Part shown: positions 30,680 through 51,460 of the stretch, in pieces
How the letters are laid out: every line of letters begins with the position of its first letter
Numbering within the stretch: the stretch's first letter is position 1
Assembly: GCF_023115425.1 (NCBI RefSeq)
Contig: NZ_CP096032.1
Coordinates: 2,294,001 to 2,358,000, forward strand
Direction: 5' to 3'
Source of the DNA: Synechococcus sp. A10-1-5-1
GTDB taxonomy: Bacteria; Cyanobacteriota; Cyanobacteriia; PCC-6307; Cyanobiaceae
DNA length: 64,000 nt
Program-made: the position numbers and the translations under genes
The notes under the pieces: model-generated
Told to the model about the DNA's origin: nothing
Databases searched by the model: none
Seen by the model: the letters and a program-made list of their open reading frames with translations, nothing else

Positions 30680-31363
30680 TCAGTCCAGATAAGGGTCCAG
30701 GAAAGACAGCGGTCGATTCATGGTTGCGGAGAAACCCAGCATTCCCCGATCCAGGTGCTGATACAGCAGAGCGTCGTCAGCGTCCAGCAGGTAAGTAGCG
30801 CCGCGTTGGGTGATGAAGTCGTCCTGGGGGACATAGGTCCGCCACTTCCCCAGCACCTCGGTCATGTTCCGCAGGCGGACGGTGGCCAGCTCAAAGGGCC
30901 GCTGGAATCCGTCGCCACCCGCCAGTCGGAACAGGGGACTGTCGAACCGTTGCGGCGCTGTGCGGTCGCCCGTGTAACCACGAAAGACCTCGCTCAAGGT
31001 TCCCGGGGAACCAATGCCGGCACACATCAAGAGCAATCCAGGCCAGGGCCCGCCTGGGGTCTGTAGGCCGGCGTAGAGCCCAAGGCCGCGGTGCAACCTG
31101 GGTTCAGCCTCCACCTTGAGGTTGCTCCGGGGAAAGCCGGTGAATTGGCAGAACCGCTCGGCTCCTGCGGCATCGCCAATGCCAATCGCCAGGGTCTTGA
31201 TTCCCGCCTGCTCCAGCTTGGGCAGGGCCGGCGCCAGGGCCTGGGCGTATTCGAGCGAATCGAAATCTCCCAGCTGGGTCATCAGGATCACCAGCCGCTT
31301 GGAACCGGACTCCATCCCAGGGATTTCAGCGATCTCGTTCAGCAGTGCCTCAGGTGCTCTCAT
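30680..31363 (-). CDS. AhpC/TSA-like (thioredoxin-fold) protein with island-supplied N-terminus
   Basis: 227 residues of the cyanobacterial AhpC/TSA-related family. It has a thioredoxin-like fold (KRLVILMTQLGDFDSLEYAQ, LAIGIGDAAGAERFC) but no obvious peroxidatic PxxxTxxC motif, so peroxidase activity is doubtful. The first 16 codons (MRAPEALLNEIAEIPG) belong to the integrated element. The original 5' end, encoding MHAPDVLLDSLRSIPG, is stranded at 51,597-51,644. The joint is inside the 71-bp repeat 31254-31324. The gene therefore remains full length but is now expressed from element DNA that also holds recombinase-arm-like sites. Confidence 0.82.
   Translation of the reverse strand: MRAPEALLNEIAEIPGMESGSKRLVILMTQLGDFDSLEYAQALAPALPKLEQAGIKTLAIGIGDAAGAERFCQFTGFPRSNLKVEAEPRLHRGLGLYAGLQTPGGPWPGLLLMCAGIGSPGTLSEVFRGYTGDRTAPQRFDSPLFRLAGGDGFQRPFELATVRLRNMTEVLGKWRTYVPQDDFITQRGATYLLDADDALLYQHLDRGMLGFSATMNRPLSFLDPYLD
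31254..31324 (+). repeat. Attachment-site repeat, left copy
   Basis: 71 bp, identical to 51535-51605 except at 31268. It lies inside the AhpC/TSA-like coding sequence, codons about 14-37, and encodes GMESGSKRLVILMTQLGDFDS on the reverse strand. Product of site-specific recombination. Confidence 0.9.
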
Positions 31364-34333: not shown

Positions 34334-36205
34334 ATGTCTGCAGACGCCGCTGTAATCAAGGCGCTTGAGTTGCCGCGCTGGAGCCGCGACCTTTTACGCT
34401 TCCTTCCACTTAAAAGTCAGTTCTTACTCACCGGCAACGTCCGAGACCGCTATCCATGGAAGGACGCCGGCAAGGAGCGAGCACGACCATTGCCCCTGCA
34501 GGGTTACCTCGCAACCTTGCTACGCACCGTGGGGGTGAGCCATGTGCTCGCTTTCGATCCGGTCAACGGTTTTTCCATCCCCCTGGGAGAGGGGGTGGAT
34601 CTGGCAGCAGAAATAGAAGCACTTCGCTTCCTGGATTTGAGTTGGAGCGCAACTGGGCGAGCAGCGGCCACGCCACCCCGGTTCTTCGAGCTACTGCCAT
34701 CGATCCTTAACAATGCTGGCGACCGCATTGGTCTCCTGGCGGATTTCTCGTCTCGTTATCTCTGCCGGGTGGACCTGCCCACCGCCGATGAGCACTACTG
34801 GTTCACCACCGCTTTGGTGTTGTCCCATGAAGTGCGGTCCCAGCCAGTCGGACCTGATCAAACGCCACTCTTCAATCCGCTGCTGTGGATTGCCGATAAA
34901 GAGGGAGATCTGCCCCCCTGGTTGGTGGTCAATAACCCTCGCCTGCGGTCCATCACCCTGCCGCCGCCGGATCGCGCTAGCAGACGTCTGCTGGCCAGCA
35001 CTCTGGTGGCTGGGCTACCGGGAGTGGCCCAGGCCAGTGCTGCTGAAATCAAGACTGCGGAAGCCACCCTGATCGAGCAATGCGATGGACTTCTTCTGGT
35101 CGACCTGGTTGCCATTGCTGAACTCTGCCGGAGGGAGTCGGTTCCACTCACTGAAATTGGCGATGGCATCCGCCGGTACAAGCTTGGCGTCACAGAAAAC
35201 CCGTGGGCTTCTCTCGATCGCGAGCGAATCCGCAGCGCCGACGCGGTGATCGCCCGACGAATCAAGGGCCAAACCCACGCTGTTACCAAGATGCTTGACA
35301 TCGTCAAGCGTGCAGTCATCGGTCTAACTGATGAGCGGGGCCGCCTCGGCCGCCCCCGCGGGGTGGCTTTCCTGGCAGGCCCTACCGGCACGGGCAAGAC
35401 GGAACTCGCCAAGACCATCACCGAACTTCTGTTTGGAGATGAGAGCGCCTATATCCGCTTTGACATGAGCGAGTTCTCAGCAGAGCACTCAGATCAGCGT
35501 CTCATTGGTGCTCCTCCAGGTTATGTCGGTTATGACACCGGAGGTGAACTTACCAATGCCATTCGTGAAAAGCCTTTCTCGGTGGTGTTGTTTGATGAGA
35601 TTGAGAAAGCTCATCCACGCATTCTTGACAAGTTCCTGCAGATACTCGATGACGGTGTGCTCACATCAGGGCAAGGGGAACGGGTCTACTTCTCGGAATC
35701 ATTTCTAATCTTCACATCCAACCTTGGGATCTATCGCCGAGACGCTTCTGGCGAACGAGTCGCCAACACTAGCCAGGATGATGATTTCGAGATAGTGGAG
35801 CGGAAGGTTTCCTCAGAGATCGATCGCTATTTCAAGCTAGAACTTGGGCGGCCGGAGATCCTTAACCGGATTGGAGAGAACGTAATCATATTCGACTTTG
35901 TTCGCCCCGATGTTGCTGATCAGATCTTCTCGATGATGTTAGAGGCCATCATCGAGCGGGTTGTGCGGGCTTCCGGTCGAGAGGTTCGACTCAGTGATTC
36001 TGTTCGCTTGAGGCTGCATGAAATCTGCCTTAATGATCTTTCTGATGGCGGGCGTGGAATACGCAACCAGCTTGAGGCCCATCTACTAAATCCACTAGCA
36101 CGTTTGCTTTTTGATGATCCCGGCGTTGGGCCTCTGCTAATCAACACAATCACTGTGGAATGTGGCCTCACCGTGCTGCACCCCGCTGCCGCAGTAGAGG
36201 GCTGA
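34334..36205 (+). CDS. Clp-type AAA+ unfoldase with N-terminal degenerate AAA-like domain
   Basis: 623 residues. Residues about 15-240 form a Rossmann/AAA-like domain without a Walker A (LKSQFLLTGNVRD, IGLLADFSSRYL). Residues 310-620 are a ClpA/B D2-type AAA+ module: Walker A GPTGTGKTE near 350, pore loop PPGYVGYD, Walker B VVLFDEIEKAH near 416, sensor 1 FTSNLG and sensor 2 GGRGIRNQ. It should remodel or thread a protein. No ClpP gene is nearby. First gene of a tightly coupled operon; one base separates it from the radical-SAM gene. Confidence 0.85.
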   Translation: MSADAAVIKALELPRWSRDLLRFLPLKSQFLLTGNVRDRYPWKDAGKERARPLPLQGYLATLLRTVGVSHVLAFDPVNGFSIPLGEGVDLAAEIEALRFLDLSWSATGRAAATPPRFFELLPSILNNAGDRIGLLADFSSRYLCRVDLPTADEHYWFTTALVLSHEVRSQPVGPDQTPLFNPLLWIADKEGDLPPWLVVNNPRLRSITLPPPDRASRRLLASTLVAGLPGVAQASAAEIKTAEATLIEQCDGLLLVDLVAIAELCRRESVPLTEIGDGIRRYKLGVTENPWASLDRERIRSADAVIARRIKGQTHAVTKMLDIVKRAVIGLTDERGRLGRPRGVAFLAGPTGTGKTELAKTITELLFGDESAYIRFDMSEFSAEHSDQRLIGAPPGYVGYDTGGELTNAIREKPFSVVLFDEIEKAHPRILDKFLQILDDGVLTSGQGERVYFSESFLIFTSNLGIYRRDASGERVANTSQDDDFEIVERKVSSEIDRYFKLELGRPEILNRIGENVIIFDFVRPDVADQIFSMMLEAIIERVVRASGREVRLSDSVRLRLHEICLNDLSDGGRGIRNQLEAHLLNPLARLLFDDPGVGPLLINTITVECGLTVLHPAAAVEG

Positions 36206-36206
36206 T

Positions 36207-36866
36207 ATGCAAGTAAGTCATTCTGAGACTAAGCAAACAATCAACATCAATAGGCTGCACTTTCCTGTAAGCACTTTGGGATTTGGCCAGAGGGTGGCTA
36301 TCTGGGTGCAGGGCTGCTCTCTGCAATGCCCTGGATGCATCAGCCGTGACACTTGGGTGCATGGCCAGGGAAATGTTGCATTCAAAGCCTTAACAAACAA
36401 TCTTGAGCACTGGCTTCCGCAGTCCGACGGACTAACAGTGTCCGGTGGCGAACCTTTTGAACAGCCTATTGCCTTGGAAATACTACTGAGTTGGTGGCGC
36501 GAGCACCACAAAGGCGACATTCTCGTGTTCTCTGGATTAAGCAGAGAGCAAATCGAGATGCAGCATTCCCGAATATTGGCACTAATCGATGTTCTGATCA
36601 GCGATCCATACCAAGAAGAGGCAGAGCACACCCTGGCCTTGCGGGGCTCAGACAACCAGCGGATGCATTTGTTGACTCCGCTTGCAGCCCAGCGCTACCG
36701 CGTACTGCCCAGCGAAAGGGCCTTAGACATCTGCTGGGATGGTGACCGGGTCTGGATGGCTGGAATTCCCAACCCCGCCGATCTGAAGGAGCTGCACCGA
36801 CGACTTCAGGCACAAGGGCTTTCATTCCAAAGCTCTGATCAGCCCTTCGTTGAGGTGTTGCCATGA
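36207..36866 (+). CDS. NrdG-like radical-SAM activating enzyme
   Basis: 219 residues. The cluster motif is C-x3-C-x2-C (GCSLQCPGC) around residue 35, followed by the SAM-binding SGGEPFEQP near 78: the short radical-SAM 4Fe-4S domain typical of NrdG/PflA activases. No anaerobic ribonucleotide reductase or pyruvate formate-lyase is nearby, so it has been recruited for another substrate, possibly installing a glycyl radical or other modification on an operon partner. ATGA overlap with the giant helicase gene indicates coupled translation. Confidence 0.83.
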   Translation: MQVSHSETKQTININRLHFPVSTLGFGQRVAIWVQGCSLQCPGCISRDTWVHGQGNVAFKALTNNLEHWLPQSDGLTVSGGEPFEQPIALEILLSWWREHHKGDILVFSGLSREQIEMQHSRILALIDVLISDPYQEEAEHTLALRGSDNQRMHLLTPLAAQRYRVLPSERALDICWDGDRVWMAGIPNPADLKELHRRLQAQGLSFQSSDQPFVEVLP

Positions 36867-39800
36867 ACCACCGTCTGATCAAGCGCTGCCCAGCCTGCGG
36901 TCATGCCAACGATCCCGCCGAGATCTACTGCCAGGGGATGAAAGCGACCGGCACAAGTTGTCAATACAACCTCCTTGATGTGGATCCGACTGGGCTGGAG
37001 CCGGCACTAGTACCAGACCCTGCTCGTGCAAACGATCTGGCCCCGCAGGCATGCGATCAGGAAGAACTCCCACTTCTTAATGGAACAGATCATCGGAACT
37101 GTCTTAATGGGCACCCTCTGGCACCCACCGATTTGCTGTGCCTGTTGTGTGGTGCTGAGCCGGCTCAAGAACTTTGTTCTGAAGGACATGCAGACCCCTC
37201 ACCCGCCTTTCAGCTATCAGGCACTCGCTTGAGCGATTTGTCCCCCGACGAACGTCAAAGCACAGAGCTCTTGCGTGCCGTCGTGAGCCAGGTGGATACC
37301 CTGCTTTTCAACCTGCAGCGGCAGGGACGATGCGCTCCTGATCTTTCCCCAGAACAGGTTCTGCTCGTCTCCCGTGCCCCCTTCAGGCTTTCCTTGTCGC
37401 CAGGTTCGGAGCGAGACGACTTTTCGTCGGGTGGAGATCTAAGCGCCAGCCAAAGCGGAGCAACGGGACGTCATTCCGCTCCGGAACGTCTGGTGGGCAT
37501 TCAGGCGCCCAGCTCTGATTGGTGGAGCCTTGGCCTCACGATTCTGGAGCTGCTGGTTGGCCCCGCCCTCTGGCAGGACATCCACCCTCAGGCATGGCAG
37601 CTTCAGGTCATCACAAATGGGGTGACAATTCCAGAATCGATCACAGACCCTTGGCGCACGCTGTTGCGAGGGCTGCTCACGCGTGATCCCCAGAGCCGCT
37701 GGGGTCATAGCGAGATCATTCGCTGGCTCGATGGTGACTGCGACATTCCTCTGTTAGAGGACACACCGCAAGGCGAGAGCGAAGGGACGCTTATCCGGCT
37801 TGCCGGTCAGCGTCATCGCAGCCCTACCAGATATGCACTGGCAGCTGCCCAATCGGACGCGTGGGAAGAGTCCCTCGACCAATTGCAACAGGGCGAGTTG
37901 CTCACCTGGCTTGAGGAAAACAATCTGGAAAGCACCAGCCTCGCGGAGGTGCGGCGACTGGCGGCAGACGAATGCCTTGAGCCAGACGAACGTTTGATGC
38001 TCGTGTTGATCCTGCTTAATCCCAACCTGCCACTTTGTTTGCGCGGAGAACTCATCGGTAGGGGCACTCTCCCAGCTAATCCACAGCGAGCCCAGGCTTG
38101 GTTGAAGGGAGTTCTTCCAAGCCGGCTGAGGCGGATTGGGCGGCAAACCTGGCTCACAGATCTGGCCGTGCGTCGCGAGGGAGCACTGAGCCAGGCCAGG
38201 GCACTGGGGATAAACCTCGATGAACCTCGCCTTGAGGCCGCGGCTCTTGTTTCCGATCGGCGGCGTCTTGAACAGGCCTGGGGCGAGCGGCGCCAGGAGT
38301 GGCCCGCCGCGCTTCATAACGGACTCAGCAATCTCATTTCAAGGGGGCGCCACAGCGAGGAACACTTGCTTGTGCTTCTTAGTGCCCAACTAGAGCAATT
38401 CCGGTCAGCGGCCGATGTCCTGAAAGAAGCTGAGTTGCTTGCTGGTCGCGCCAAGGTCTCTGACCACTGGGACGAGGCTGCTGCGCGCCGCTGGTTATCT
38501 CACAGCCAGCGTGAGATTTTTGAAGCACTTCAGGAACACCTGGCTGATTTCGTCCGCTGCGGCCTGAAGCAACCGGATGATTGGGCGGATCAGTTCCGCA
38601 GTGATCAGCGGCTTCCTCTGGAGCAGGCACTGCTTTTGCTGTCGATACCAGCAGATATTTGGATCAAGCCAGAGGGTGGGGAGCATTGGCAGAGATTGCT
38701 GCATTTCTTTCGGCGTCGTGTCTTGTCAGGTATCCAGCGGGGGCCCTTGCTGGCGCTCTCGGTAAGGCCTGGCGGCAAGAGGGTGGATCTTGCTGAACTC
38801 AACACCGAGGCATTGCCCGCCACCACGTTGCTCAACCATTTGGTTGGTAGGCAGTCCAAGCCCCGCAGCCTTGATCCTGAATTGCTGGAGACCAATCCGG
38901 CCCTTAACCAAAGGCTGCGACGTCTACGGCAGGAGGCTGATGCATATCAACGAGAGACAGGGATCCAGGCTCTACATCTGGGATACCCTCTCTTGCTCAA
39001 AAGGGACGGCCCCACTCGGAACCGCGAGGCGCGAAAGCCAAAGCTGATTCCTTTGCTGCTGTGGCCAGTACGACTTGGTGTCACCGCTCAGGGGAACCTT
39101 CCCCAGTTGGGATACGACCGCGATCGTGGGAGTGGTGATGGTATTCAGCTCAACCCCGCCCTTGAAGGTGTCCTTTCGGTTCGCCAGTTTCGAGAGTTGA
39201 AGGAAGCACTGGAGGAGCTGCAGCAGCGCAGTGCTCTTACTGGTACTCAGGTAATAGATGCTCTTGGCACAATCTTCCCTAATGGCGAAGGGGTCCTGGA
39301 GCCCTGCCCCCCGAACCCATCGCTACCAGACGGTAGTGATGAAAGCTTGGTTCCCTCAGGTGTGCTGTTCCTATGCAGTTTTTCCGCACAAACACTTGCG
39401 CATGAATTAGCGCAGCTTGAGCAGCGGCCTTGCCTGGAGGGACCTATGGCTGCTTTGCTTCGACTTTCCAACAACGCTGACCTAACGGCAGAGCAGCACA
39501 GTTCACCACTAGAAAGTGATCGCTTCCTGGTTACTCCAGCAGATCCCTCTCAGAAGCGAGCCGTTTGGGCTTCCCGTCAACAACCTGGCGTGCTCATCCA
39601 GGGGCCACCTGGTACAGGTAAGAGTCAGACCATTGTCAACATTGTGGCTGATGCATTGGGCCGGCATGAGCGTGTGCTGGTGGTCTGTCAAAAGCAGGCA
39701 GCCCTTGAAGTTGTATGTAACCGGTTGGAGGCAGCTCAGTTGGGAGACCGCCTCTGTCTGATCACCGATCCATCACGCGACCGGAAGCCGCTGCTCAGAA

Positions 39801-42800
39801 AGTTGCGCCATCAATTGGATAGTTGGGACCCAACACGACGCCGCGACGAGCTGAGTCGTGAGCGCATTGCAATTGCCACAGATCTCACCCGCCTTGAAAA
39901 CGAGCTTGACGGCATCTATCGGGCTATGGCTACTCCATTGCTCAGTAGCGGCCTTAATGATCAGAAAGTGATCGATTCATTGATGCAGCTGGGCAAGAAC
40001 CCAAATGCGCCAGCCCTCACTGCTTTACGACCTGTTCTACACAACTGCCACGTGGAAGAGGTTCGGACCATCGCCCGTCAGTGCGCCGACATTGCAGGAC
40101 TCTGGTTAAGGGCTCGTCCAGAGAACAGTCCTTTGCAGGTACTCCTTTGGTTCTCAGTTGACGAGAGCACTCTTTCGGCACTCACGCAAGCATTTCAACA
40201 GCTTCGGCAGCATGATCGGGCCCTCGCTGCAGACCTGAACGCCTTTCCCAACGCAATTGAAAGCCCTCAACCTGATGTTGTTCAGGCCTGGATCAACACC
40301 TTCAGCGCAATTCTTCAGGATGTGGACGGCAAGTTGGCAAGTCTACTCACCATTTGGTTACCACTGTTTTCAGATGACAGCGGCAATCAGGTCCGTGTTC
40401 AGTTAGACACCCTTGCCCGTGAGCGAAGGGTAGTTCAGGAACCCGGGGCTGCCCTGCGCTGGCAAAAAGTTTTGCAGCCTCTTGCTGACGCCGACCTCGA
40501 GGCTGTTGCTAAGGCTCTAGAGATCTGGTGTCGGGGGCGTAGCTCTTTCCTCAGTTTGCTCAACCCTGCCTTCCACCGCGCCAGAAGCTTGTTGCAGCAA
40601 CAGGTACCCCAAGTGATGTGCGACGACTTCAATCTGAGCATCTCACTACAGAACTCGCTGGTCTATGAAATCCAACTTCGGGGTGACTGCCGTCGCTACG
40701 AGTCGCTGAGACGTGACCTTGGACTGCCTCAAAGTTCTGCAAATCTCCGTCAGCAGGAGCTTTTGACAGCAGTTGACAGGCTGTTGGATCAGTTCGATCA
40801 GGCATCTGATGTTGTTGAGGCCATGCGCAACTGCCCTCTGCGGCAGCAGGCCGATCAGGCTCTTTGCAGTGGACGGGCTGAACAAATCAGAGATTTTGTG
40901 GCCAGCCTGCAGTCTGGCGTGCGTCGACAGGTGCTTCGAGGACAATGCCGTCAATCTTTGGTTGAGCTTGCGCCCTGGACCGATCCGAAATGGCTAAAGG
41001 CTTTAGAGCAACGAATTACCAGTGGAGAGCCAATAACTGCTGAACTTGACAGCATTCACGAGAGCTGGGACTCACTGGTCGATTTCCAGCGTTACAGGAG
41101 TAGATCAGCCACCTTGAGTACCAATGAGCATGCCGTGATGGCTGTGCTTGCGGCTAAACGGAACCATTGGCTGTCTCTTAAGCCGGAACAACTGTCAGAG
41201 GCCATTCGGTTCACCATTGAGCGGGAAGCGCTGTTGGGGTGGCAGGCAGTATCGGAAGCTCAGGAGCCGGCTCTCCTTCTTACACGGCAGGACGTCGATC
41301 GTCGTACCAAGCAACTGGCAACTCAGGACGCCCGTTTGCTCGAACTTAATAAACATCTCACAGCTACTCCTGCCGCACCAGAGAGGGTGCATCTTCGGCC
41401 TCGTTGGGATGACGTTGTCATGCTCACAGGGCCACGTGCTCGCAAGCTGCGAGAGGTAGTAGAACTAGGTGAAGACCGGGGCCTTTTCGAACTCTGCCCT
41501 GTTTGGCTAGCCAATCCTGAAACGGTATCTCAGATATTTCCGTTGCGGCAGGGTCTCTTTGATCTGGTGATCTTTGATGAGGCTTCCCAGTTACCGGTTG
41601 AAAGTGCCATTCCGGCAATGTACCGTGCTAATCGCATCGTCATCAGTGGCGATGAGAAACAGCTGCCTCCGACGAGGTTCTTCAGCAGTGGCTTCATTGA
41701 CGAAAGCGATGAGGAAATCATTGCTGAGGAGGAGGTAGCAGATCCCGACACGATTGCCGACAACCATATAGCTGCCGAAACACGCAGGCAGGTAAAAGAC
41801 TGTAGCGACCTGCTGGAACTTGGTAGTGCGGCGGGATTGACCCATGTCTCCCTTGATATTCACTATCGCTCTCGTTTCCGGGCTCTGATCGCCCATTCCA
41901 ATGCAGCCTTCTACCAAAACAAGCTGAGCATCCCTGTGCTGCACCCTGCCGATGAGATTCGTCGCACAAGACCTTTGCAGCTGGAGCTCGTCAATGGGAC
42001 TTACATCAACCAGAGCAATCGTGATGAGGCAATGGCTGTGGTCGCATTCCTGGAAAACCTTTGGTGCGGCCCTAACACTGCTGATCCAAGTTGCCTGCCC
42101 ACAACAGGGGTCGTCACTTTCAACAAAAACCAAGCGGATCTGATTGAAGATTTGCTTGACCGCTTTTCCCAGGAAACCCCTCTGTTTCACCAAGCCTTGG
42201 AGCGGGAGCGGCAGCGGCGATTCCACAGCGAAGACTGTGGATTCTTCGTCAAGAACCTCGAAAATGTGCAGGGTGATGAACGAGATCTGATTCTCTTCTC
42301 TACTACCTTTGGACGTGATGAATCCGAGAGATTCCTGCGTCGTTTCGGTGCTCTCGGTCAAAAGGGCGGCGAGCGGCGCCTGAATGTGGCGACATCAAGG
42401 GCACGCGACAAGGTGGTGATCTTTTCCTCAATGCCGATTGAGGAAATTAGTGACGCTCACCGACAGCGCAAGACCCCACAAAGCCCCCGCGACTTTCTTC
42501 AATCTTATCTTCTGTATGCCAAAAGCATCTCAGATGGACATCTCGATGAAGCTGAGCTTCTGCTTAATCGGCTGCACCGCAGCAGTCCCTCAAGTTCAGC
42601 CGCCCAAAGTGATCGTTCCCAGCGCTTCTTTGTCCAGTCTGTGTCTGAGTACTTGCGCAGCAAAGGGCTGACTGTGGAAGTACCTTCCGCTGTCGATGCT
42701 TTCGCTTTTGATCTTGCAATACGAAATCCCGAAACGGGGCTATTTGCCATAGGGATTGAATGCGACCCCCCGCGCCACCAGGATTTAGTGCATGCCAGGG

Positions 42801-42955
42801 ATCGGGAAATTTGGCGACCTCGAGTGCTCCAGTCTTCGTTGCCACAAGTTCATCGTGTCTGGTCAAGGCTCTGGCTCGCTGAACCATCGAAAGAGCAAAG
42901 GCGACTGAATGAGGCGGTTCGTCGGGCTCTTCCATCCCTAGGAGCAACAGCATGA
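36863..42955 (+). CDS. Giant zinc-ribbon/kinase-like/SF1 helicase/nuclease protein
   Basis: 2,030 residues. Zinc knuckles lie at residues 9-35 and 75-105 (RCPACGHAND, LLCLLCGAE). A protein-kinase-like C-lobe follows (RCAPDLSPEQVLL near 155, then SAPERLVGIQ and DWWSLGLTILELL near 205-225); no glycine loop or VAIK lysine is seen, so probably a pseudokinase. Residues 890-1880 are a Upf1/Dna2-type SF1 helicase: QGPPGTGKSQT near 913, FDEASQLPVES near 1570, GDEKQLPPTRF and a late GDERDLILFSTTFGRDE. The C-terminus (1925-2015) is a PD-(D/E)xK/Vsr-like nuclease (FDLAI...GIECD...RDREIW...VHRVWSRLW). It overlaps both neighbours by 4 bases. Confidence 0.85.
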   Translation: MNHRLIKRCPACGHANDPAEIYCQGMKATGTSCQYNLLDVDPTGLEPALVPDPARANDLAPQACDQEELPLLNGTDHRNCLNGHPLAPTDLLCLLCGAEPAQELCSEGHADPSPAFQLSGTRLSDLSPDERQSTELLRAVVSQVDTLLFNLQRQGRCAPDLSPEQVLLVSRAPFRLSLSPGSERDDFSSGGDLSASQSGATGRHSAPERLVGIQAPSSDWWSLGLTILELLVGPALWQDIHPQAWQLQVITNGVTIPESITDPWRTLLRGLLTRDPQSRWGHSEIIRWLDGDCDIPLLEDTPQGESEGTLIRLAGQRHRSPTRYALAAAQSDAWEESLDQLQQGELLTWLEENNLESTSLAEVRRLAADECLEPDERLMLVLILLNPNLPLCLRGELIGRGTLPANPQRAQAWLKGVLPSRLRRIGRQTWLTDLAVRREGALSQARALGINLDEPRLEAAALVSDRRRLEQAWGERRQEWPAALHNGLSNLISRGRHSEEHLLVLLSAQLEQFRSAADVLKEAELLAGRAKVSDHWDEAAARRWLSHSQREIFEALQEHLADFVRCGLKQPDDWADQFRSDQRLPLEQALLLLSIPADIWIKPEGGEHWQRLLHFFRRRVLSGIQRGPLLALSVRPGGKRVDLAELNTEALPATTLLNHLVGRQSKPRSLDPELLETNPALNQRLRRLRQEADAYQRETGIQALHLGYPLLLKRDGPTRNREARKPKLIPLLLWPVRLGVTAQGNLPQLGYDRDRGSGDGIQLNPALEGVLSVRQFRELKEALEELQQRSALTGTQVIDALGTIFPNGEGVLEPCPPNPSLPDGSDESLVPSGVLFLCSFSAQTLAHELAQLEQRPCLEGPMAALLRLSNNADLTAEQHSSPLESDRFLVTPADPSQKRAVWASRQQPGVLIQGPPGTGKSQTIVNIVADALGRHERVLVVCQKQAALEVVCNRLEAAQLGDRLCLITDPSRDRKPLLRKLRHQLDSWDPTRRRDELSRERIAIATDLTRLENELDGIYRAMATPLLSSGLNDQKVIDSLMQLGKNPNAPALTALRPVLHNCHVEEVRTIARQCADIAGLWLRARPENSPLQVLLWFSVDESTLSALTQAFQQLRQHDRALAADLNAFPNAIESPQPDVVQAWINTFSAILQDVDGKLASLLTIWLPLFSDDSGNQVRVQLDTLARERRVVQEPGAALRWQKVLQPLADADLEAVAKALEIWCRGRSSFLSLLNPAFHRARSLLQQQVPQVMCDDFNLSISLQNSLVYEIQLRGDCRRYESLRRDLGLPQSSANLRQQELLTAVDRLLDQFDQASDVVEAMRNCPLRQQADQALCSGRAEQIRDFVASLQSGVRRQVLRGQCRQSLVELAPWTDPKWLKALEQRITSGEPITAELDSIHESWDSLVDFQRYRSRSATLSTNEHAVMAVLAAKRNHWLSLKPEQLSEAIRFTIEREALLGWQAVSEAQEPALLLTRQDVDRRTKQLATQDARLLELNKHLTATPAAPERVHLRPRWDDVVMLTGPRARKLREVVELGEDRGLFELCPVWLANPETVSQIFPLRQGLFDLVIFDEASQLPVESAIPAMYRANRIVISGDEKQLPPTRFFSSGFIDESDEEIIAEEEVADPDTIADNHIAAETRRQVKDCSDLLELGSAAGLTHVSLDIHYRSRFRALIAHSNAAFYQNKLSIPVLHPADEIRRTRPLQLELVNGTYINQSNRDEAMAVVAFLENLWCGPNTADPSCLPTTGVVTFNKNQADLIEDLLDRFSQETPLFHQALERERQRRFHSEDCGFFVKNLENVQGDERDLILFSTTFGRDESERFLRRFGALGQKGGERRLNVATSRARDKVVIFSSMPIEEISDAHRQRKTPQSPRDFLQSYLLYAKSISDGHLDEAELLLNRLHRSSPSSSAAQSDRSQRFFVQSVSEYLRSKGLTVEVPSAVDAFAFDLAIRNPETGLFAIGIECDPPRHQDLVHARDREIWRPRVLQSSLPQVHRVWSRLWLAEPSKEQRRLNEAVRRALPSLGATA

Positions 42956-44343
42956 GTGGACCCAAAATCGTAGACATTCGCGTAGTTGAAGCCATTCAGG
43001 AGAGACAGCGGCGCCTGATGCGTGAACGCTTCAAACAGATGCAAAATCAGTGGCAGCAGCAGCGTCAGCGTATTGAAGCTGCCCTGGTAGAGATCCGATC
43101 GCTTAATGAGGCTGATGTAATCAGAGCCATCGAGCGGTCGATTTTCGACATGGATCGGAGCTTTGCGCAGCTCAATGGAGACCAATCTCTGCAGGAACTT
43201 GAAGCCCGTGGGGCTGCACGGTTGGCCTTCATGGAGGCACAGCTTGAGCGGATTAACCAACAGATCAAAGACTCGGTTCTCGAGGCGCGTCAGCGAGCTC
43301 GGTCTCTGCAGGCAGCTGTAAATGACCTAGCCAATCGACTCCAGGCAGCAGGTATGCAGCATGAGCGCAAGCTGCTATTGGCGGAGCGATCCGTTGGTGC
43401 CATAGAGCGTGCGGCTCAAATACTTATTTCCTACGAACAAGATCTCCAGAAGGAACAAAGCAATCAGGAGATGCATGAGGCGCTTATGGATCTGGGAATC
43501 AGCGCGATATCCCGCCACTTAAACGCCGACTTTCGCGATCCAACTCAGGAAAGAATCGAGCAGCTTCTTGTGCAACTGGAACTACTCGATACTGGTTCTG
43601 TTGCTACCAATCTGCATGCTGCTATTAACGCTTTGGATGGGGAATTAGATCCACATCAACGCCGGGTTCGTCTGGATTCACTTGCACTCCAAATATCGGA
43701 AGCACTGCAACAAGGCAAAGAAGCTGCTGAGCGTCTCGCCACCCTCAATGATCTAGAAGCCCAGTTGGGTGTATTTGACACTGTCCCTGCGAGACTGTTG
43801 GATGCCATAGCTGACCAACGCAGAAGCAAGAAAGGTGTTTCAACCCTCAAGGAGCTCCGTCAAGAAGTCGAGAGTTGGTGTGAAGAGGAGGCTCGGCGTG
43901 TTGATGGCGAGCGTATGCGCAGCGTGGTGCTCGGTTCTCTTCGGGACCTCGGCTATGAGCTCCGCGAAGGCATGGCGACTGGATGGGTAGAGGGTGACTC
44001 CATTGTCATTCAGAAAGAAGGTAATAGCGGCTACGCGGTTGAACTGCAAGATCTAAACGGGCGATTGCGTAGTCAGGTGATCCGGTATGGGGATCCCAGT
44101 CTTCCCGCAAATGATCAACAACGTCAGCGGGACACTGAAGTTGAGAAGCAATGGTGCAGTGCGCATGCTCAAACCCTGGACAATCTGCGTCAACAAGGAA
44201 TAGAAGCGCAAATTATGGCTAAAAGAGAGCCCGGTGACGTCCCTCTGGTTGTGGTTCGCACAGGTGATGCTAGCCACTCGTCCCGTAGGAGTGACCTGGC
44301 TGGTAATTTAAATCAGAGTCAAAGGGGTCGACGAAAACATTAA
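42952..44343 (+). CDS. Coiled-coil protein, fourth gene of the operon
   Basis: 463 residues. Long heptad-rich helices occupy about residues 10-190 (QERQRRLMRERFKQMQNQWQ; then RINQQIKDSVLEARQRARSL) and 260-330, followed by a small C-terminal alpha/beta domain (GYELREGMATGWVEGDSIVIQ...GYAVELQDL) and a basic tail. No catalytic motif. ATGA overlap with the helicase-nuclease gene. Likely a structural or bridging partner of the complex; function unknown. Confidence 0.75.
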   Translation: MSGPKIVDIRVVEAIQERQRRLMRERFKQMQNQWQQQRQRIEAALVEIRSLNEADVIRAIERSIFDMDRSFAQLNGDQSLQELEARGAARLAFMEAQLERINQQIKDSVLEARQRARSLQAAVNDLANRLQAAGMQHERKLLLAERSVGAIERAAQILISYEQDLQKEQSNQEMHEALMDLGISAISRHLNADFRDPTQERIEQLLVQLELLDTGSVATNLHAAINALDGELDPHQRRVRLDSLALQISEALQQGKEAAERLATLNDLEAQLGVFDTVPARLLDAIADQRRSKKGVSTLKELRQEVESWCEEEARRVDGERMRSVVLGSLRDLGYELREGMATGWVEGDSIVIQKEGNSGYAVELQDLNGRLRSQVIRYGDPSLPANDQQRQRDTEVEKQWCSAHAQTLDNLRQQGIEAQIMAKREPGDVPLVVVRTGDASHSSRRSDLAGNLNQSQRGRRKH

Positions 44344-44425
44344 TCCAAGCCGGCAACTCTTTGCACGCTGTATGCCTCTTCTGGACGATACGACGATTCA
44401 TTTCATCCATTCAATCCGATTACTA

Positions 44426-45088: not shown

Positions 45089-45177
45089 TTGGCTGTGGTC
45101 AGCGACCTTGAAAGGTAGAGGGAGCAATGAGCTCTGGGTTCTCGCTATGAGCGCGATGTCGAGTCAGCATCTCTCCT

Positions 45178-45495: not shown

Positions 45496-45552
45496 GACCC
45501 AGTTTGCCGGGCTTCAGAAGGAGGTACCAGCAGTGTCATCCGCACAGTCCTC

Positions 45553-45790
45553 TTGCCAACCTTGCTGTTTTTGCCAACCATTTTCGCGGTCTGAAAGTTC
45601 CCCAGTATTAATTGCGATTTGGGAGGGCTCTTCTTTATTTTCTTTCTACCTTTAAAGAAAAAGGTTGGTAAGGATGGCATCAGGCTTGAGAACCCTTGCC
45701 GCCAGGGGGCTTAGGTCTTGCCAACCTTCTTGCCAACCCTGGTCAGAGGTTGGTGAATCCGTCTGAGGTTGGTTGCCAGCGTTGCCAACC
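45553..45790. repeat. Iteron-like cluster, candidate replication origin of the element
   Basis: The nonamer TTGCCAACC occurs five times on the forward strand (45553, 45571, 45718, 45730, 45782), with inverted or near copies GGTTGGTAA at 45663, AGGTTGGTG at 45747 and GAGGTTGGTTGCC at 45765. An A/T-rich stretch (about 45605-45660) lies between the two groups. The right group overlaps the 3' end of the primase gene, where two copies encode GWQEGWQD. This layout beside a replication gene is typical of satellite and plasmid origins. Confidence 0.6.
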
Positions 45791-48012
45791 CACTCGTAAC
45801 CGCGTTTGAGGATCTTCGTGGTGGGATCCGTCCGTCTTCTGGGCTTCCAGGCTTTGCCGACGGCGGCCTTAATGGCGCGGGAGAGCTTCATCGTGTCGGC
45901 GCGTTCTTGGCGATCGAGGGGCACACCGATCCGCTCCAGAAGTAGATCGGAGGAGACGAATGTTTCACCAAGGCTGCGTGCTGCTTCGAGGGTGTCAGCG
46001 ACCTTGACTTCCCAGGGTTCTGCGATGGTGGCGCCGAGGGCTCTGGTGCGAATGGCACCAGAGCGCGGATGTGATTCCGGGAAATAGGTGCGCATGCCAT
46101 TAGCGAGCAGGGTCATGACGGTGCGCCAGATGCCGTCTCGATTGGCAGCGATCCACTGAGGCTTGGCCTCTCTCTCCACGAGGCAGACCCAGAAGCGTCG
46201 AGCTCCGGTTGGATCGGTCAGGACCTCGTCTTCGTTGGTGGTGCCGAACATGACGGACCGGCGGGGGTGACGGATGGCGACCTTCTCGTGCTTCTCGACG
46301 TATTTGTCCTCATGGAAGGTGAGCCAGGCTTTGAACTCGGAAGCGGAGCGGGAGATGGTCATCTTTTCCAGCTCGGCGATTTCGAAGAGCCAGGCGGAGT
46401 TGATGCGAGAGAGGAAGTCCTTGGCCTCAAGATCACCGACGTTGCAGGCGGCATCGACCCAGCGCCTGGTGGGCACCAAGGCCGCGATGGAGGAGGACTT
46501 GAGGAAGCCCTGCGCGCCAGAGAGCACAAGCAGGGTGTCGTGCTGAGCTCCGGGGGTGATGCCGCGATTAACGGCACCGCCGAGCTGTCGCCACATCAGC
46601 TCAATAGAGAGGTCATCGTCGCGATCGAAGCCAAAGGCATCGGCGAGCTCATCACTGGTGACCAGCTCAAGGTCAGGACGATCAACCAGTCCGAGCAGGT
46701 ATTCACGGATTGGGTTGAAGGGGTTGCCGTTGGCCAGGTATTCGATGGCGCTCATGGCATCGGACCGGGTGGTCTCCATCTGATGAACGTGAGCCAGCAG
46801 CTGGTGAGCGAGGTGGGGCTTTTCGACCATGTTCCCGTCGACTTCAATGACGCGATCCAGTTCGTTGAAGCGGATCTGGTGTTTGAAGTTGAGGAACTGC
46901 TGGAGCATCAGCAGGGTCGGGGCTGATTTGTCGATTTCGGGCTCAACGACCAAGTGGCCATCGATGTCATTGCTGGTGGTGACGAGCAGATCAGCGCGGA
47001 TTTGAGCTTCGACCTTTGAGAGCCGCTGCTCGATCCGAGCGTTGATTTCACGCTTGGGGACTCCCAGGCCATTGGGCTTGGCTCCAAGGACATCACGGAG
47101 AGCGCCGCGGTTGAGCTTGTTGCTTGGTGAGGCATCAGCAATGGCGGAGGCGCCGTTGTTGAGGATGACCCGATGGTCGGGCCAGGCCAGGTGGAGCTCT
47201 TGATGCCAGCGGCTGAACTCCTCCTCAAGGAACTCAACGGGATCGAGGAGGTTTTCGGAGAGGTCAGCGATGACCTTGGCCGCGGCAACGGGACCGAGGT
47301 CTGTGATGAGCTCCTCCATGCCGGCCTTGGCATCAGCGTGGAGATCGCGGTGTCTGGTGACGGCGTAGTTGTGCCCTTGGCGGAAGGGAAGGATTTGGAG
47401 CTTGAGGCCACGGCGGCGTGCCTGGCCGATCACGGTGCCGAGCAGGTTGGGGGCAATGCCGGTATCGCAATCGCCGATGTAGCCCTTGCACCAACGGGGC
47501 AGCCCTGAGCCATAGAGGTGACCGGGGGCAGTCAGTCCGATGCAGGGGATGCCAGCCAGCAGGGTGCAGGCCATGGCATCAAAGAAGCCTTCAGTAGCGA
47601 TCTTGGCAAGGCCGATCGGATTGCCATCCGGGCCCTCAAGGTTGGAGGGATCAAAGGGTTGGCAGGCGCCGGTCTTGGTTGCGACTTCGGCGTCAGGGTT
47701 GAGGCGATCGCCGGTGACGGGATCTTCAGAACCCTTGGGGTAGAGGTATTTCGCATGGCGTTCCCGTTCGGCGTCCCATGGTGGGGAATCGCAGCGCAGG
47801 GAGTAGGTGGGTGCTTTGGCCTTGGGGTTGAAGCAGATGAGGATGCCGCCGGTTTCGGTTTCACGGGCCCGGCCGAAGATGTCGAGCCAATCGGCTTCGA
47901 CCTCCTCCCAGGTCAGAGAACGGAGGAAGCCCTGGGCCACCATCCAGTTGATCTGCTCATCGTTGAAACCACGCTTGTGGATCTGCTGGCGGTGTTGATC
48001 AGAGAGGGTCAT
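45652..48012 (-). CDS. TOPRIM-like/VapE-type primase-helicase
   Basis: 786 residues. The N-terminal third (about 100-240) has a TOPRIM-like layout (ATEGFFDAMACTLLAGIPCIGL, then GYIGDCDTG), typical of primases. The C-terminal half is a VapE/SF3-type ATPase with Walker A-like SGAQGFLKSS near residue 505, FEIAELEKM and FGTTNEDEVLTDPTGARRFW. It should initiate replication of the excised element at the adjacent iterons. It overlaps the helicase gene by one base. The tail is rich in Gln/Gly because the iterons are encoded there. Confidence 0.85.
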   Translation of the reverse strand: MTLSDQHRQQIHKRGFNDEQINWMVAQGFLRSLTWEEVEADWLDIFGRARETETGGILICFNPKAKAPTYSLRCDSPPWDAERERHAKYLYPKGSEDPVTGDRLNPDAEVATKTGACQPFDPSNLEGPDGNPIGLAKIATEGFFDAMACTLLAGIPCIGLTAPGHLYGSGLPRWCKGYIGDCDTGIAPNLLGTVIGQARRRGLKLQILPFRQGHNYAVTRHRDLHADAKAGMEELITDLGPVAAAKVIADLSENLLDPVEFLEEEFSRWHQELHLAWPDHRVILNNGASAIADASPSNKLNRGALRDVLGAKPNGLGVPKREINARIEQRLSKVEAQIRADLLVTTSNDIDGHLVVEPEIDKSAPTLLMLQQFLNFKHQIRFNELDRVIEVDGNMVEKPHLAHQLLAHVHQMETTRSDAMSAIEYLANGNPFNPIREYLLGLVDRPDLELVTSDELADAFGFDRDDDLSIELMWRQLGGAVNRGITPGAQHDTLLVLSGAQGFLKSSSIAALVPTRRWVDAACNVGDLEAKDFLSRINSAWLFEIAELEKMTISRSASEFKAWLTFHEDKYVEKHEKVAIRHPRRSVMFGTTNEDEVLTDPTGARRFWVCLVEREAKPQWIAANRDGIWRTVMTLLANGMRTYFPESHPRSGAIRTRALGATIAEPWEVKVADTLEAARSLGETFVSSDLLLERIGVPLDRQERADTMKLSRAIKAAVGKAWKPRRRTDPTTKILKRGYEWVGNAGNQPQTDSPTSDQGWQEGWQDLSPLAARVLKPDAILTNLFL

Positions 48013-49448
48013 CAGCCCTGCACCTCCGCATCAGCGATCAGGTGAACGGCGCGTTGAGCTCGGGTGAAGGCGGTGTACCAAAGGCGGCGGCGTTCTGCTG
48101 CGCCACCGGCAGCGCGGTCCATTTCGCGGCCCTGAATGAAGACGTTGTGGAACTGGGAGCCCTGAGCCTTGTGGCAGGTCATGCACCAGTAGGGCTGGAG
48201 CTCAGCGAAGGAATCCCGGAGGTTCCAGAACTCATCCCAGGCGCCTTGGCCTTGGCCGCGGCCCATCTTTTCCTTGGCCTCTTCCCTGAGGGCTTCAATG
48301 GCGATCAGAAGGCGGCCCTGGTGACTGGGGTCAATGGTTCGTATCCAGCGCGGCGGGTCGCCGTCATCGGATTGAACGAGGAGATACCAAGAGAGGAAGG
48401 GCTTGCCGTCGCTGCAGGCGGGATGGAGGAAGTCGGCCTGCTGTGCCTGCTCAATTACGAGCTCACGACTGGAGCCATAGAGCAGTTCGCTGTGGTCATC
48501 GGGGGCTTTGACGCCGTCCTGGGTGACGACCCGTTCACCTGCCAGGAAAGGTGCAGCCTGGCGACCGTAGACATGGCGGCGGATGCCGGCATTGAGGCGA
48601 GCGACCTCTTCATTGGTGAAGGCGATCACGCGGAAGGCATCAGGGTCATCCTTCTCGTGATGCTCGGCAGCCATCTCCAGGAAGGCGTGCTGCCATTCCT
48701 TTTTGTCGGCGTAGACAAAGATCGAGGAGTCGTCGCCGATGACGGACTTGGTGAACTTGGGCCGCCAGGTGTTGCCGGTGGTCTGACGGATGGCGGTGGC
48801 GGCATCGAGCACGGCCCCGTCATGGCGCATCACCTTGGTGAGGTCGAAGCGTGGGGTGCAGCGCAGCGCCGGTGAAACCCGCCCGAACTTCACGGGGGCG
48901 AGCTGGGCCTGATCACCGATGAAGACGATCTTGGTCCAGAAGTCCGCAGCGTCCTCGATGTAACCGAGGAGCTTGGGGTGCATCATCGAGGCTTCATCTG
49001 CCAGCCAGATGTCGTTCTCATCGAGGCGGGGTTTGGAGCCGTATTGAGGGACGAAATCGACTTCGTCCTTCTTCTTCTGTTCGCGGAGTCCGAGCAGGGA
49101 CGCGAAGGTGGCCGTCTCTGATTTGGCGACGCCGCAGGCCTTGGCGAGAACATCGCAGGCCTTGTGGGTTGGAGCGCAGAGCCCAACGCTGTAACCGGCA
49201 GCCATTAGGGCTTCACGGATTAAGCGAGAGGTGGTGGATTTGCCGCTTCCGGCTGGGCCGTTGAAGGAGGAAAAGGTGCCACCACCGTCCTGGCGACACC
49301 AGGCGATTAGGCCATTGATTGCAGCCTGCTGTTCTGTTGTTGCGGAGAAGGCTTGGAGCTTGTTGGCGAGAACCGCAGTAATATGGGCATTGCGCTCAGC
49401 CTGCTCTTGCTGTGCTCGCCGTGCGGAGGGGGTGATGCCAGCTGTCAT
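48012..49448 (-). CDS. Dda/RecD2-like SF1 DNA helicase
   Basis: 478 residues. Walker A FNGPAGSGKSTTSRLI lies near residue 65, then CAPTHKACDVLAKACG, Walker B IWLADEASMM, GDQAQLAPVKFG, and the late motif WCMTCHKAQGSQFHNVF with YTAFTRAQ. Order and length fit T4 Dda-type 5'-3' helicases. Likely unwinds element DNA during replication with the primase gene. Overlaps both neighbours, so the core is one operon. Confidence 0.87.
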   Translation of the reverse strand: MTAGITPSARRAQQEQAERNAHITAVLANKLQAFSATTEQQAAINGLIAWCRQDGGGTFSSFNGPAGSGKSTTSRLIREALMAAGYSVGLCAPTHKACDVLAKACGVAKSETATFASLLGLREQKKKDEVDFVPQYGSKPRLDENDIWLADEASMMHPKLLGYIEDAADFWTKIVFIGDQAQLAPVKFGRVSPALRCTPRFDLTKVMRHDGAVLDAATAIRQTTGNTWRPKFTKSVIGDDSSIFVYADKKEWQHAFLEMAAEHHEKDDPDAFRVIAFTNEEVARLNAGIRRHVYGRQAAPFLAGERVVTQDGVKAPDDHSELLYGSSRELVIEQAQQADFLHPACSDGKPFLSWYLLVQSDDGDPPRWIRTIDPSHQGRLLIAIEALREEAKEKMGRGQGQGAWDEFWNLRDSFAELQPYWCMTCHKAQGSQFHNVFIQGREMDRAAGGAAERRRLWYTAFTRAQRAVHLIADAEVQG

Positions 49449-51400: not shown

Positions 51401-51420
51401 TGGGAGTATTCCTTGATCTG

Positions 51421-51460
51421 TTGTCAACGATTGTTGTCAACAGGTGTCACCTATGTCAAC
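51421..51460. promoter_or_regulatory. Candidate recombinase arm-type sites, right end
   Basis: TTGTCAAC at 51421 and 51434, and ATGTCAAC at 51453, with a degenerate GTGTCAC between. The same motif clusters at 31370-31405 at the other end. Located just upstream of the recombinase start, so it may also autoregulate it. Confidence 0.55.

What the first reader, a model, noticed from the sequence alone, without database searches (positions are those of the whole stretch)
34334..44343. Four-gene coupled cargo: Clp-type AAA+, radical-SAM activase, giant kinase-like/helicase/nuclease and coiled-coil protein
Seen directly: the four frames are separated by 1 base or overlap by ATGA, are confined to an integrated element, and combine a protein unfoldase, an NrdG-like radical-SAM enzyme with no reductase to activate, a 2,030-residue helicase-nuclease and a coiled-coil protein. 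Known families: helicases with kinase-like domains (as in the Mokosh defence helicase) and PD-(D/E)xK-tailed SF1 helicases act against phage. The radical-SAM plus unfoldase pairing is not a defence composition I can name. Inference: an element-borne immune or anti-rival system in which the activase modifies the helicase or coiled-coil protein and the unfoldase resets or activates the complex.
Basis: partly seen in the sequence, partly recalled or inferred. Interest (0 to 1): 0.92.

Follow-up and report, generated by a model that had tools for sequence, protein, structure and literature searches.

The report
Mobile four-gene unfoldase–radical-SAM–helicase-nuclease operon
A mobile DNA element in a small cyanobacterium carries four tightly linked genes, a protein-unfolding machine, a radical enzyme, a giant DNA helicase-nuclease and a coiled-coil protein, and the same four genes recur in the same order in bacteria of several phyla, most likely as an undescribed defence against invading DNA.

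Summary
In detail: four frames at 34334-44343, 1 bp apart or overlapping by ATGA, inside a 20.3-kb integrated element (integrase, VapE primase-helicase, 84-bp flanking repeats). The genes are a real unit. In the best 80 of at least 538 radical-SAM relatives from genome contigs, 64 loci carry AAA–rSAM–helicase–coiled-coil in that order. Of the other 16, ten are cut or broken, four reordered and two show the rSAM only. Six phyla are represented among the 64. Distances of the four proteins correlate.

Refinements: the "Clp" is a two-ring Hsp100 with a dead first ring and no ClpP-type loop. The rSAM is PflA/NrdG-like in a genome without NrdD or a glycyl-radical domain. The kinase-like part is a pseudokinase. 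The helicase-nuclease is a distant relative of antiphage Hhe and ProA and fails both cut-offs. Known defence genes (Hachiman, Lamassu, Olokun, a CBASS-type cyclase) lie beside a few copies; that enrichment is modest.

Published traces: one review sentence on a P. aeruginosa operon of this make-up, and a paper using what look like the same genes as a defence-hotspot border. Neither gives a function. Best reading: a new, unassayed anti-invader system. The rSAM substrate is the open question.

The parts
34334..36205 (+). Hsp100-type AAA+ unfoldase, 623 aa: residues about 11-285 a degenerate D1 ring without Walker A; about 290-600 an active-looking D2 ring; no room for a Clp N-domain; no IGL/F-like loop
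36207..36866 (+). radical-SAM activase-like protein (Fer4_12; C37-x3-C41-x2-C44, GGEPF, LRGSDNQ)
36863..42955 (+). 2030-aa zinc-ribbon / pseudokinase / DUF4011-SF1 helicase / MTES_1575 nuclease protein
36887..37150 (+). two N-terminal zinc-ribbon-like Cys clusters (Cys invariant in 47 sequences)
37205..37732 (+). pseudokinase, C-lobe only in this member (APE, SDWWSLG kept; N-lobe columns are gaps)
39542..42433 (+). SF1 helicase core (GPPGTGKSQT, DEASQ, SGDEKQ, NVQGDERD, GGERRLNVATSRAR)
42629..42916 (+). MTES_1575 (Vsr-like, recalled) nuclease domain, GIECD...H
42952..44343 (+). coiled-coil protein, N-terminal MSGPK, long helices and a small alpha+beta C-terminal domain
31241..31324 (.). left attachment-site repeat, in the 5' part of the AhpC/TSA-like gene 30680-31363(-)
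51522..51605 (.). right attachment-site repeat, in the displaced N-terminal fragment of the same gene
50180..51427 (-). integrase of the element (phrog_1, phrog_216)
48012..49448 (-). RecD/Dda-like SF1 helicase of the element
45652..48012 (-). VapE-like primase-helicase of the element

Best explanation
The four genes encode one horizontally moving anti-invader system whose effector is the giant helicase-nuclease. Shown here: the genes form a conserved, ordered, co-inherited cassette, and the catalytic motifs of the Hsp100 D2 ring, rSAM, SF1 helicase and nuclease are kept across phyla. Inferred: the helicase-nuclease loads on foreign or damaged nucleic acid through its zinc ribbons and helicase and cuts with its nuclease domain. 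Its pseudokinase is a non-catalytic docking or switch module. The coiled-coil protein is the adaptor that links the helicase to the Hsp100 ring, because that ring lacks the N-domain by which Clp proteins take substrate. The Hsp100, without a ClpP-type loop, remodels the helicase–coiled-coil complex (releases or resets it) rather than feeding a protease. The rSAM enzyme installs a single radical-made modification on a peptide of the coiled-coil protein or the helicase and so licenses or arms the complex.
For: Order and coupling: of the best 80 of at least 538 rSAM relatives, 64 loci read AAA-rSAM-HEL-CC on one strand. Measured from longest frames, the AAA-rSAM gap is at most 7 bp and rSAM-HEL at most 30 bp in 64 of 64; HEL and CC overlap by 4 bases in 46 of 64. 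In plasmids the 8 records with helicase cover of at least 80% are the same 8 that head the rSAM list. Distance matrices of the four proteins (65 rows) correlate in all 6 pairs (Spearman 0.61-0.90, 0 of 300 permutations as high). Motif conservation in 65 sequences. Effector kinship: NCBIfam antiphage_ProA 508.9 bits and Hhe 306.2 bits, both under their cut-offs; PADLOC PDC-S37 506.9, Hhe 208.3, MkoA 128.3. Mobility: integrated element here; large plasmids; 7 of 199 sampled genomes of the Pseudomonas piscis genus with a near-full-length helicase at 70% identity or more, the query's genome included; close rSAM kin in 2 other genomes of 300 in the family; a 100/100 group of three Chlamydiota and one Legionella row. 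Defence neighbours: Hachiman A+B beside L114 and Lamassu A+B beside L143, Olokun A+B beside L147, a CBASS-type cyclase beside L126 and Ppl beside L104. By my sorting 13 of 270 sampled flank frames against 2 of 255 control frames, p 0.007; with every unverified name merged, at least 10 of 270, p 0.037. Dead D1: Walker A in the D1 region in 0 of 65, IGL-like loop in 0 of 65; structural match to ClpC/ClpB/Hsp104 over residues 11-622. Pseudokinase: DFG Asp in 4 of 47, beta3 Lys in 1 of 47.
Against: No phenotype is known. At the level of loci with a verified pair of a known system the flank test is weak: 3 of 61 against 0 of 40 control regions, p 0.28. The sorting of hits into specific and generic was mine and made after seeing them; the two rounds used different E-value limits (1e-10 and 1e-25) and frame lengths; the second control was drawn mostly from hosts of set 1, not of set 2; and controls also ring, with a type II methyltransferase among them. 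In P. aeruginosa the apparent homologue of the helicase gene is in every isolate (PMC10250203, passages), unusual for a defence system. No copy was found on viral contigs. The coiled-coil model has no PDB match at E <= 0.001, so the adaptor role rests on order and co-inheritance only. The rSAM substrate is unknown.
Confidence: 0.5

Rival explanations
1. A cellular genome-maintenance or stress system (for example clearing stalled replication or R-loops) that also travels on elements; the Hsp100 and rSAM mature or recycle a repair helicase-nuclease.
For: The apparent same helicase gene is core in P. aeruginosa; the best PDB sequence match of the helicase protein is SMUBP-2.
Against: Patchy presence elsewhere: 7 of 199 genomes in the P. 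piscis genus, 3 of 300 in the window's family counting itself; carriage on an integrase element and large plasmids.
Confidence: 0.2
2. Element-borne weapon against rival mobile elements (plasmids, other integrative elements) rather than phages: the host element uses it to exclude competitors.
For: Carried by an element with its own replication genes and no structural-gene match among its eight frames scanned against PHROGs, and by plasmids typed as conjugative.
Against: Most of the 80 genome loci were not tested for element ends, so the link to elements is shown for few copies; a special case of the best explanation rather than its opposite.
Confidence: 0.2
3. The rSAM makes a glycyl radical in the coiled-coil or helicase protein and the radical itself is the effector or an oxygen-sensitive switch.
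For: rSAM is closest to PFL-activating enzyme in the PDB and to NrdG in NCBIfam; N-terminal MSGPK in 55 of 64 coiled-coil proteins, G334-Y335 invariant in 63.
Against: 9 of 64 coiled-coil proteins (Enterobacterales) start MSSS or MSAS without that glycine; a GRE-like motif is found in 1 of 64 coiled-coil and 15 of 64 helicase proteins, 0 of 64 in the other two; one host is an oxygenic phototroph.
Confidence: 0.05
4. rSAM and Hsp100 are constitutive assembly factors that build an active helicase-coiled-coil complex once; there is no infection-triggered regulation.
For: AAA is the most conserved component (median identity 61%, rSAM 52%, helicase 45%, coiled coil 31%), as expected of a chassis serving a fast-evolving effector; the rSAM+AAA pair recurs with other partners.
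Against: Pseudokinase, and FHA, kinase and phosphatase genes in the Aristaeella relative, point to regulation.
Confidence: 0.2

Closest known systems
Hhe and ProA antiphage helicase-nucleases (NCBIfam NF042953, NF058533; PADLOC Hhe, PDC-S37)
   Same: shared SF1 helicase and C-terminal nuclease region (best stretches 884-2023 for ProA, 1317-2012 for Hhe)
   Different: scores far below both NCBIfam cut-offs (306.2 of 2000, 508.9 of 1500); the ProA match begins at profile position 641, so the zinc-ribbon/pseudokinase front is not in it; extra rSAM, Hsp100 and coiled-coil genes
Mokosh (MkoA helicase; kinase association recalled)
   Same: SF1 helicase; MkoA 128.3 bits, best over the helicase end
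   Different: no cut-off to judge by; pseudokinase instead of kinase; no rSAM or Hsp100 in Mokosh (recalled)
DLHK pseudokinase family and its P. aeruginosa operon (PMC12599244, section 13 read)
   Different: the review gives one sentence on the operon and no function; no sequence comparison with it was made here
P. aeruginosa cDHS1 right flank (PMC10250203, passages)
   Same: small hypothetical, large DUF4011 gene and radical SAM gene in a row beside a defence hotspot
   Different: described as flanking core genes, not as a system; the AAA gene is not mentioned in the passages seen
ClpB/ClpC/Hsp104 (Hsp100)
   Same: two-ring fold, D2 motifs, GYVGY pore loop, arginine finger
   Different: no Walker A in the D1 region, no IGL-like loop, no room for an N-domain (model residue 11 aligns near ClpB residue 181); M-domain not assessed
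NrdG / PflA radical activases
   Same: CxxxCxxC, GGE, best hits by NCBIfam and PDB
   Different: below the NrdG cut-off; no NrdD or glycyl-radical domain found in the genome

Membership tests
NCBIfam antiphage_ProA (NF058533) / Hhe (NF042953) | curated whole-protein score cut-off (1500 / 2000 bits) | tested here: not met
   508.9 and 306.2 bits
PADLOC PDC-S37 | full-length match to the candidate single-gene model (1550 positions) | tested here: inconclusive
   506.9 bits, best stretch positions 285-1341; no curated cut-off given; the model also rings in 8 of 14 control genomes
Mokosh | MkoA-type helicase over the whole model | tested here: inconclusive
   128.3 bits in three stretches, best 789-1076 of 1112 positions; no cut-off given
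NrdG | NCBIfam TIGR02491 cut-off 126.1 bits | tested here: not met
   88.5 bits
NrdG | partner NrdD in the genome | tested here: not met
   0 matches to PF13597
radical SAM superfamily | CxxxCxxC cluster motif and GGE motif | tested here: met
   conserved in 65 sequences
glycyl-radical enzyme activases | glycyl-radical substrate protein present | tested here: not met
   0 matches to PF01228 in the genome; no shared GRE motif in the cassette proteins
Hsp100 (ClpA/B/C) | two AAA+ rings in one chain | tested here: met
   VIA-align Z 23.9-27.2 in the 50 listed rows, two-ring chains aligned over about 11-622
Hsp100 (ClpA/B/C) | ATP-binding Walker A in both rings | tested here: not met
   0 of 65 have it in the D1 region
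ClpP-partner unfoldases | IGL/IGF-like ClpP-binding loop | tested here: not met
   0 of 65, (simple pattern in the aligned region)
DLHK pseudokinases | HRD Asp kept, beta3 Lys and DFG degraded, helicase fusion, operon with ATPase and radical activase | tested here: inconclusive
   features fit (and section 13 of PMC12599244); their alignment was not available for comparison
anti-phage defence system | reduces phage or plasmid success when expressed | not testable with these tools
   needs experiment

The most novel reading that the evidence does not exclude
An immune effector gated by a radical-SAM post-translational modification: the rSAM enzyme writes a covalent mark on the coiled-coil or helicase protein and a pseudo-D1 Hsp100 reads or removes the marked state. 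The rSAM + Hsp100 pair would then be a reusable chassis that different bacteria join to different effectors (helicase-nuclease; helicase + PIN; kinase/FHA/phosphatase sets).
Probability: 0.25. Interest if true: 0.93.

Novelty: new variant of a known kind. Interest (0 to 1): 0.77.

Why it matters
A four-gene operon kept in order across six phyla, with the motifs of all its enzymes conserved, has no function that I could find in print; in the searches I made (of an open-access library without preprints) it appears only as passing remarks on P. aeruginosa. If it is an anti-invader system it would be, to my knowledge, the first that uses an activase-type radical-SAM enzyme and an Hsp100 remodeller, and it would give dead-ring Hsp100s and bacterial pseudokinases a testable role. 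The operon can be moved to laboratory hosts, so the question can be settled directly.

Tried and rejected
Glycyl-radical substrate: an early look at ten coiled-coil proteins showed invariant MSGPK, and the window's own SGYAV resembles the PFL motif (motif recalled). SGYAV is not conserved and 9 of 64 relatives lack the MSGPK glycine, so I dropped it as a leading idea.

Common coiled-coil component in the wider rSAM+AAA operons: the Aristaeella protein aligns with MSGPK and GY at 15% identity, but profile comparison with the MSGEK proteins of filamentous cyanobacteria and with the Moellerella/Acinetobacter/Photobacterium/Polaromonas proteins was not significant. Not claimed.

Fold of the coiled-coil protein: good model (mean pLDDT 87), no PDB match at E <= 0.001; the listed rows look chance-level.

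Viral origin: of 39 viral-contig rSAM hits none showed a second cassette gene by my profiles; none of 21 candidate stretches encodes the helicase front. E. coli: 0 of 5426 genomes with at least 80% of the Serratia AAA+rSAM stretch at distant-blastn sensitivity.

A first scan of genome contigs with the window rSAM alone found no relative; the alignment did.

Identity with P. aeruginosa PA2725-PA2728: locus tags recalled. A search of 199 genomes of the P. piscis genus (unnamed; the one inspected, G641, had other neighbours) and the 14 named control genomes gave no P. aeruginosa sequence that I could recognise, so identity rests on the two papers' wording.

Promoter scan: no sigma-70-like site in 33660-45600; no conclusion.

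Defence-neighbour test, what was left out: frames of 120 aa or more (round 1) or 150 aa or more (round 2), up to 1500 aa, sampled at random: 130 of 167 and 126 of 151 control, 140 of 263 from 41 loci and 129 of 184 control. Only 25 of 51 families of round 1 were listed. Of the ten set-2 frames checked singly, four rang (OloA, OloB, cyclase, Ppl) and six did not; where the E2, PD-Lambda-4_B and Upx/DrmD/MkoC hits lie was not found out.

Rows dropped: conservation and co-inheritance used the 64 ordered loci of 80 plus the window. The other 16: L098, L120, L133 (end before CC), L101, L109, L131 (helicase in two frames), L070 (broken rSAM and helicase frames, contig end), L089 and L141 (split or mis-ordered frames near a contig end), L137 (split helicase, no CC found), L074 and L075 (rSAM only), and four variants in another order, all Verrucomicrobiota by title (L076, L080, L091, L130). 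Structure alignments used 63 (CC) and 47 (AAA) rows.
Full report
WHAT IS THERE. The window (C1:2294001-2358000 of a 2,404,104-base single-contig genome) holds four frames on the + strand: 34334-36205, 36207-36866, 36863-42955 and 42952-44343, one base apart or overlapping by ATGA. They sit in an integrated element of about 20.3 kb. An 84-bp direct repeat, 94% identical, lies at 31241-31324 and 51522-51605. The first copy is in the 5' part of an AhpC/TSA-like gene (30680-31363, minus), the second in a displaced N-terminal fragment of the same gene: the whole-genome search finds residues 1-48 again at 65% identity at that place, and both read IPGMESGSKRLVILMTQLGDFDSL. So the element most likely entered this gene and supplied it with a new start. 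Towards the right repeat lie an integrase, a RecD/Dda-like helicase and a VapE primase-helicase. Eight frames of the element were given to PHROGs and none matched a capsid, tail or terminase family (the four cassette proteins were not given). G+C falls from about 0.62-0.65 to 0.52-0.59 over the cassette.

IT IS A REAL UNIT. With my own profiles for the four proteins, 64 of the 80 carry AAA-rSAM-HEL-CC in that order on one strand. Of the other 16, three have the helicase in two frames, seven are cut by contig ends or broken, two show the rSAM only, and four are reordered variants, all Verrucomicrobiota by title. Measured from longest frames, so that overlaps are exaggerated, the AAA-rSAM gap is at most 7 bp and rSAM-HEL at most 30 bp in 64 of 64; HEL and CC overlap by four bases in 46 of 64. 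By title the 64 are 54 Pseudomonadota, 3 Cyanobacteriota, 3 Chlamydiota, 2 Acidobacteriota, 1 Verrucomicrobiota and 1 Bacteroidota. In plasmids, the eight records with at least 80% helicase cover are the same eight that head the rSAM list: seven Rhizobium and one Caballeronia. I read five of the eight: the order is the same in all five, with the helicase split in two of them and the rSAM shortened in one. Distances between the proteins correlate for all six pairs (Spearman 0.61-0.90; 0 of 300 permutations as high). Median identities are AAA 61%, rSAM 52%, helicase 45%, coiled coil 31%.

IT MOVES. In the window's family, 4 of 300 genomes match the rSAM, one being itself and one a weak 32% match; the two close ones, G187 and G209, appear to be the same records as L072 and L073. 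7 of 199 genomes of the P. piscis genus hold a near-full-length helicase at 70% identity or more, the piscis genome counted. In an AAA tree the window groups with three cyanobacterial rows (100/100) and then with a Verrucomicrobiota row (99/99); three Chlamydiota rows and a Legionella quateirensis row form one group (100/100). The tree tool warns that more than one change is no proof of transfer.

THE PARTS. (1) Hsp100: the window protein is 49-73% identical to 46 relatives. D2 has Walker A, Walker B, pore loop GYVGY, sensor 1, arginine finger and GGRGIRN, largely invariant (the pore loop itself is modelled at low confidence). The model (mean pLDDT 86) aligns from residue 11 to 622 with ClpC, ClpB, Hsp104 and ClpA; Z is 23.9-27.2 in the 50 rows listed, rmsd about 6.5-13 Å for two-ring chains and about 3.4-4.3 Å for ClpB D2-only chains. 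No Walker A in the D1 region and no IGL-like loop in any of 65. (2) rSAM: CxxxCxGC, GGEPF and LRGSDNQ conserved in 65 sequences; best NCBIfam hit NrdG, 88.5 bits under a 126.1 cut-off; best PDB relative PFL-activating enzyme. No NrdD and no Gly_radical domain in the genome. Of 29 other host genomes, four have a second match with E <= 1e-11. (3) Helicase-nuclease: two Cys clusters invariant in 47 sequences. In the pseudokinase, APE reads A 44, P 47, E 47 of 47 and SDWWS 46-47 of 47, while the DFG Asp is kept in 4 of 47, the column I take for the beta3 Lys in 1 of 47, and the HRD Asp in 38 of 47; the window's copy lacks the N-lobe. SF1 helicase and MTES_1575 motifs are conserved. (4) Coiled coil: MSGPK start in 55 of 64, MSSS or MSAS in 9; M1, S2, G334, Y335, E364, C402 and G428 invariant in 63; long helices and a small alpha+beta end; no PDB match.

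WIDER KIN. The rSAM+AAA pair recurs with other partners. Acinetobacter, Moellerella, Photobacterium and Polaromonas plasmids have helicase–PIN protein–hypothetical–AAA–rSAM; the AAA of the first two is 32.6 and 33.7% identical to the window's over about 600 residues. An Aristaeella plasmid has DUF4011 helicase–Ser/Thr kinase–MSGPK protein–FHA–rSAM–AAA–phosphatase, AAA 38.5% identical over 623 residues. Whether the third proteins are homologous to the window's coiled coil was not shown.

DEFENCE CONTEXT. I scanned sampled flanking frames with PADLOC against control regions elsewhere in host genomes. Round 1: 130 frames of 20 loci against 126 control frames of the same 20 genomes, E <= 1e-10. 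Round 2: 140 frames of 41 other loci against 129 control frames, E <= 1e-25; this second control comes from 19 host genomes of round 1 and one of round 2, so it is not matched. Round 1 shows Hachiman A+B at L114 and Lamassu A+B at L143 (verified), a REase_II, PDC-S20 and mad3; only 25 of 51 families were listed. Round 2 shows Olokun A+B at L147, a CBASS-type cyclase at L126 and Ppl at L104 (verified), and an E2, PD-Lambda-4_B, Upx/DrmD/MkoC and mad3 not traced to a frame. Controls show mad3 (3 and 6 frames), RtcR in both rounds, an amino-acid transporter, a type II methyltransferase, WYL, PDC-M62B, PDC-M37B/DolB, mad2 and an orphan methyltransferase model. Setting aside as generic mad2, mad3, RtcR, WYL, PDC-M37B/DolB and the transporter, and taking the methyltransferase models as one frame, I count 13 of 270 against 2 of 255 (p 0.007), or at least 10 of 270 if untraced names share frames (p 0.037); by loci with a verified pair, 3 of 61 against 0 of 40 (p 0.28). 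The sorting was made after seeing the hits, so this is supportive, not proof. L100 also has a caspase-like neighbour (2.5e-14).

LITERATURE. PMC12599244 (section 13 read in full; other passages) says that in P. [quoted passage not shown] the flanking marker genes (merR and the DUF4011 gene) were found in every P. aeruginosa isolate. Together these fit this operon; I recall the locus tags PA2725-PA2728 but compared no sequence. PMC7159879 (passages) has one mention of a radical SAM effector beside vWA-MoxR-FtsH systems, a different setting. PMC10853773, PMC13391042 and PMC4918941, passages only, gave nothing on this operon's function. No title or abstract listed describes the four-gene set as a system. 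The name ProA of NF058533 was not traced to a paper.

VERDICT. The four genes are a conserved, mobile, functionally unassigned operon. Anti-invader function is the best reading (about 0.5 with the mechanism sketched; the existence of the unit itself is near certain). Shown: unit, order, co-inheritance, conserved motifs, dead D1, pseudokinase, absence of classical rSAM partners in the genome. Inferred: target, trigger, adaptor role, substrate and purpose of the radical chemistry.

Noticed in passing
window 31797-33667; L041 7815-8711 and 9410-10762; L036 7020-8741; L088 6658-7959: A DUF4236 protein and an ion-channel gene sit just upstream of the cassette in the window; relatives of both lie beside the Aristaeella relative, and relatives of the DUF4236 protein beside two Caballeronia cassettes. 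Possibly a separate defence module or an accessory.
   Followed up: partly
window 44372-45088; L071 17664-18419; L136 18504-19142; L147 17960-18727; L035 5521-6366: A staphylococcal-nuclease-like gene lies near the cassette in the window and in several relatives.
   Followed up: partly
L065, L066, L255, L256: A five-gene relative (SF1-like helicase, PIN protein, hypothetical, AAA, rSAM) on plasmids of Acinetobacter, Moellerella, Photobacterium and Polaromonas; in Moellerella near ArdA and a phage-type lysis gene.
   Followed up: partly
L062, L064, L067, L068: Another rSAM operon: AAA, DUF1257 or hypothetical, DUF2997, in three of four a further gene, rSAM; Bacillota and Actinomycetota plasmids.
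   Followed up: no
L069: Treponema succinifaciens plasmid: an rSAM and an AAA gene inside a contractile-injection baseplate cluster.
   Followed up: no
L037, L039, L040: Decaying copies: split helicase in R. leguminosarum Ta1k, short rSAM and split helicase in Rhizobium sp. C104, helicase cut at an ISKra4 transposase in Microvirga.
   Followed up: no
G209:C3:103652-104260: A second, stop-ridden AAA fragment (63% identity) in a close relative that also has a cassette on another contig: probably a remnant of an earlier copy.
   Followed up: no
L130: Opitutia bin with three helicase-like genes in a row before the coiled-coil and rSAM genes.
   Followed up: no
window 56832-56925: ARAGORN's only tRNA call in the window (tRNA-Ala, 94 nt) lies inside a long open frame and is probably false.
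   Followed up: no
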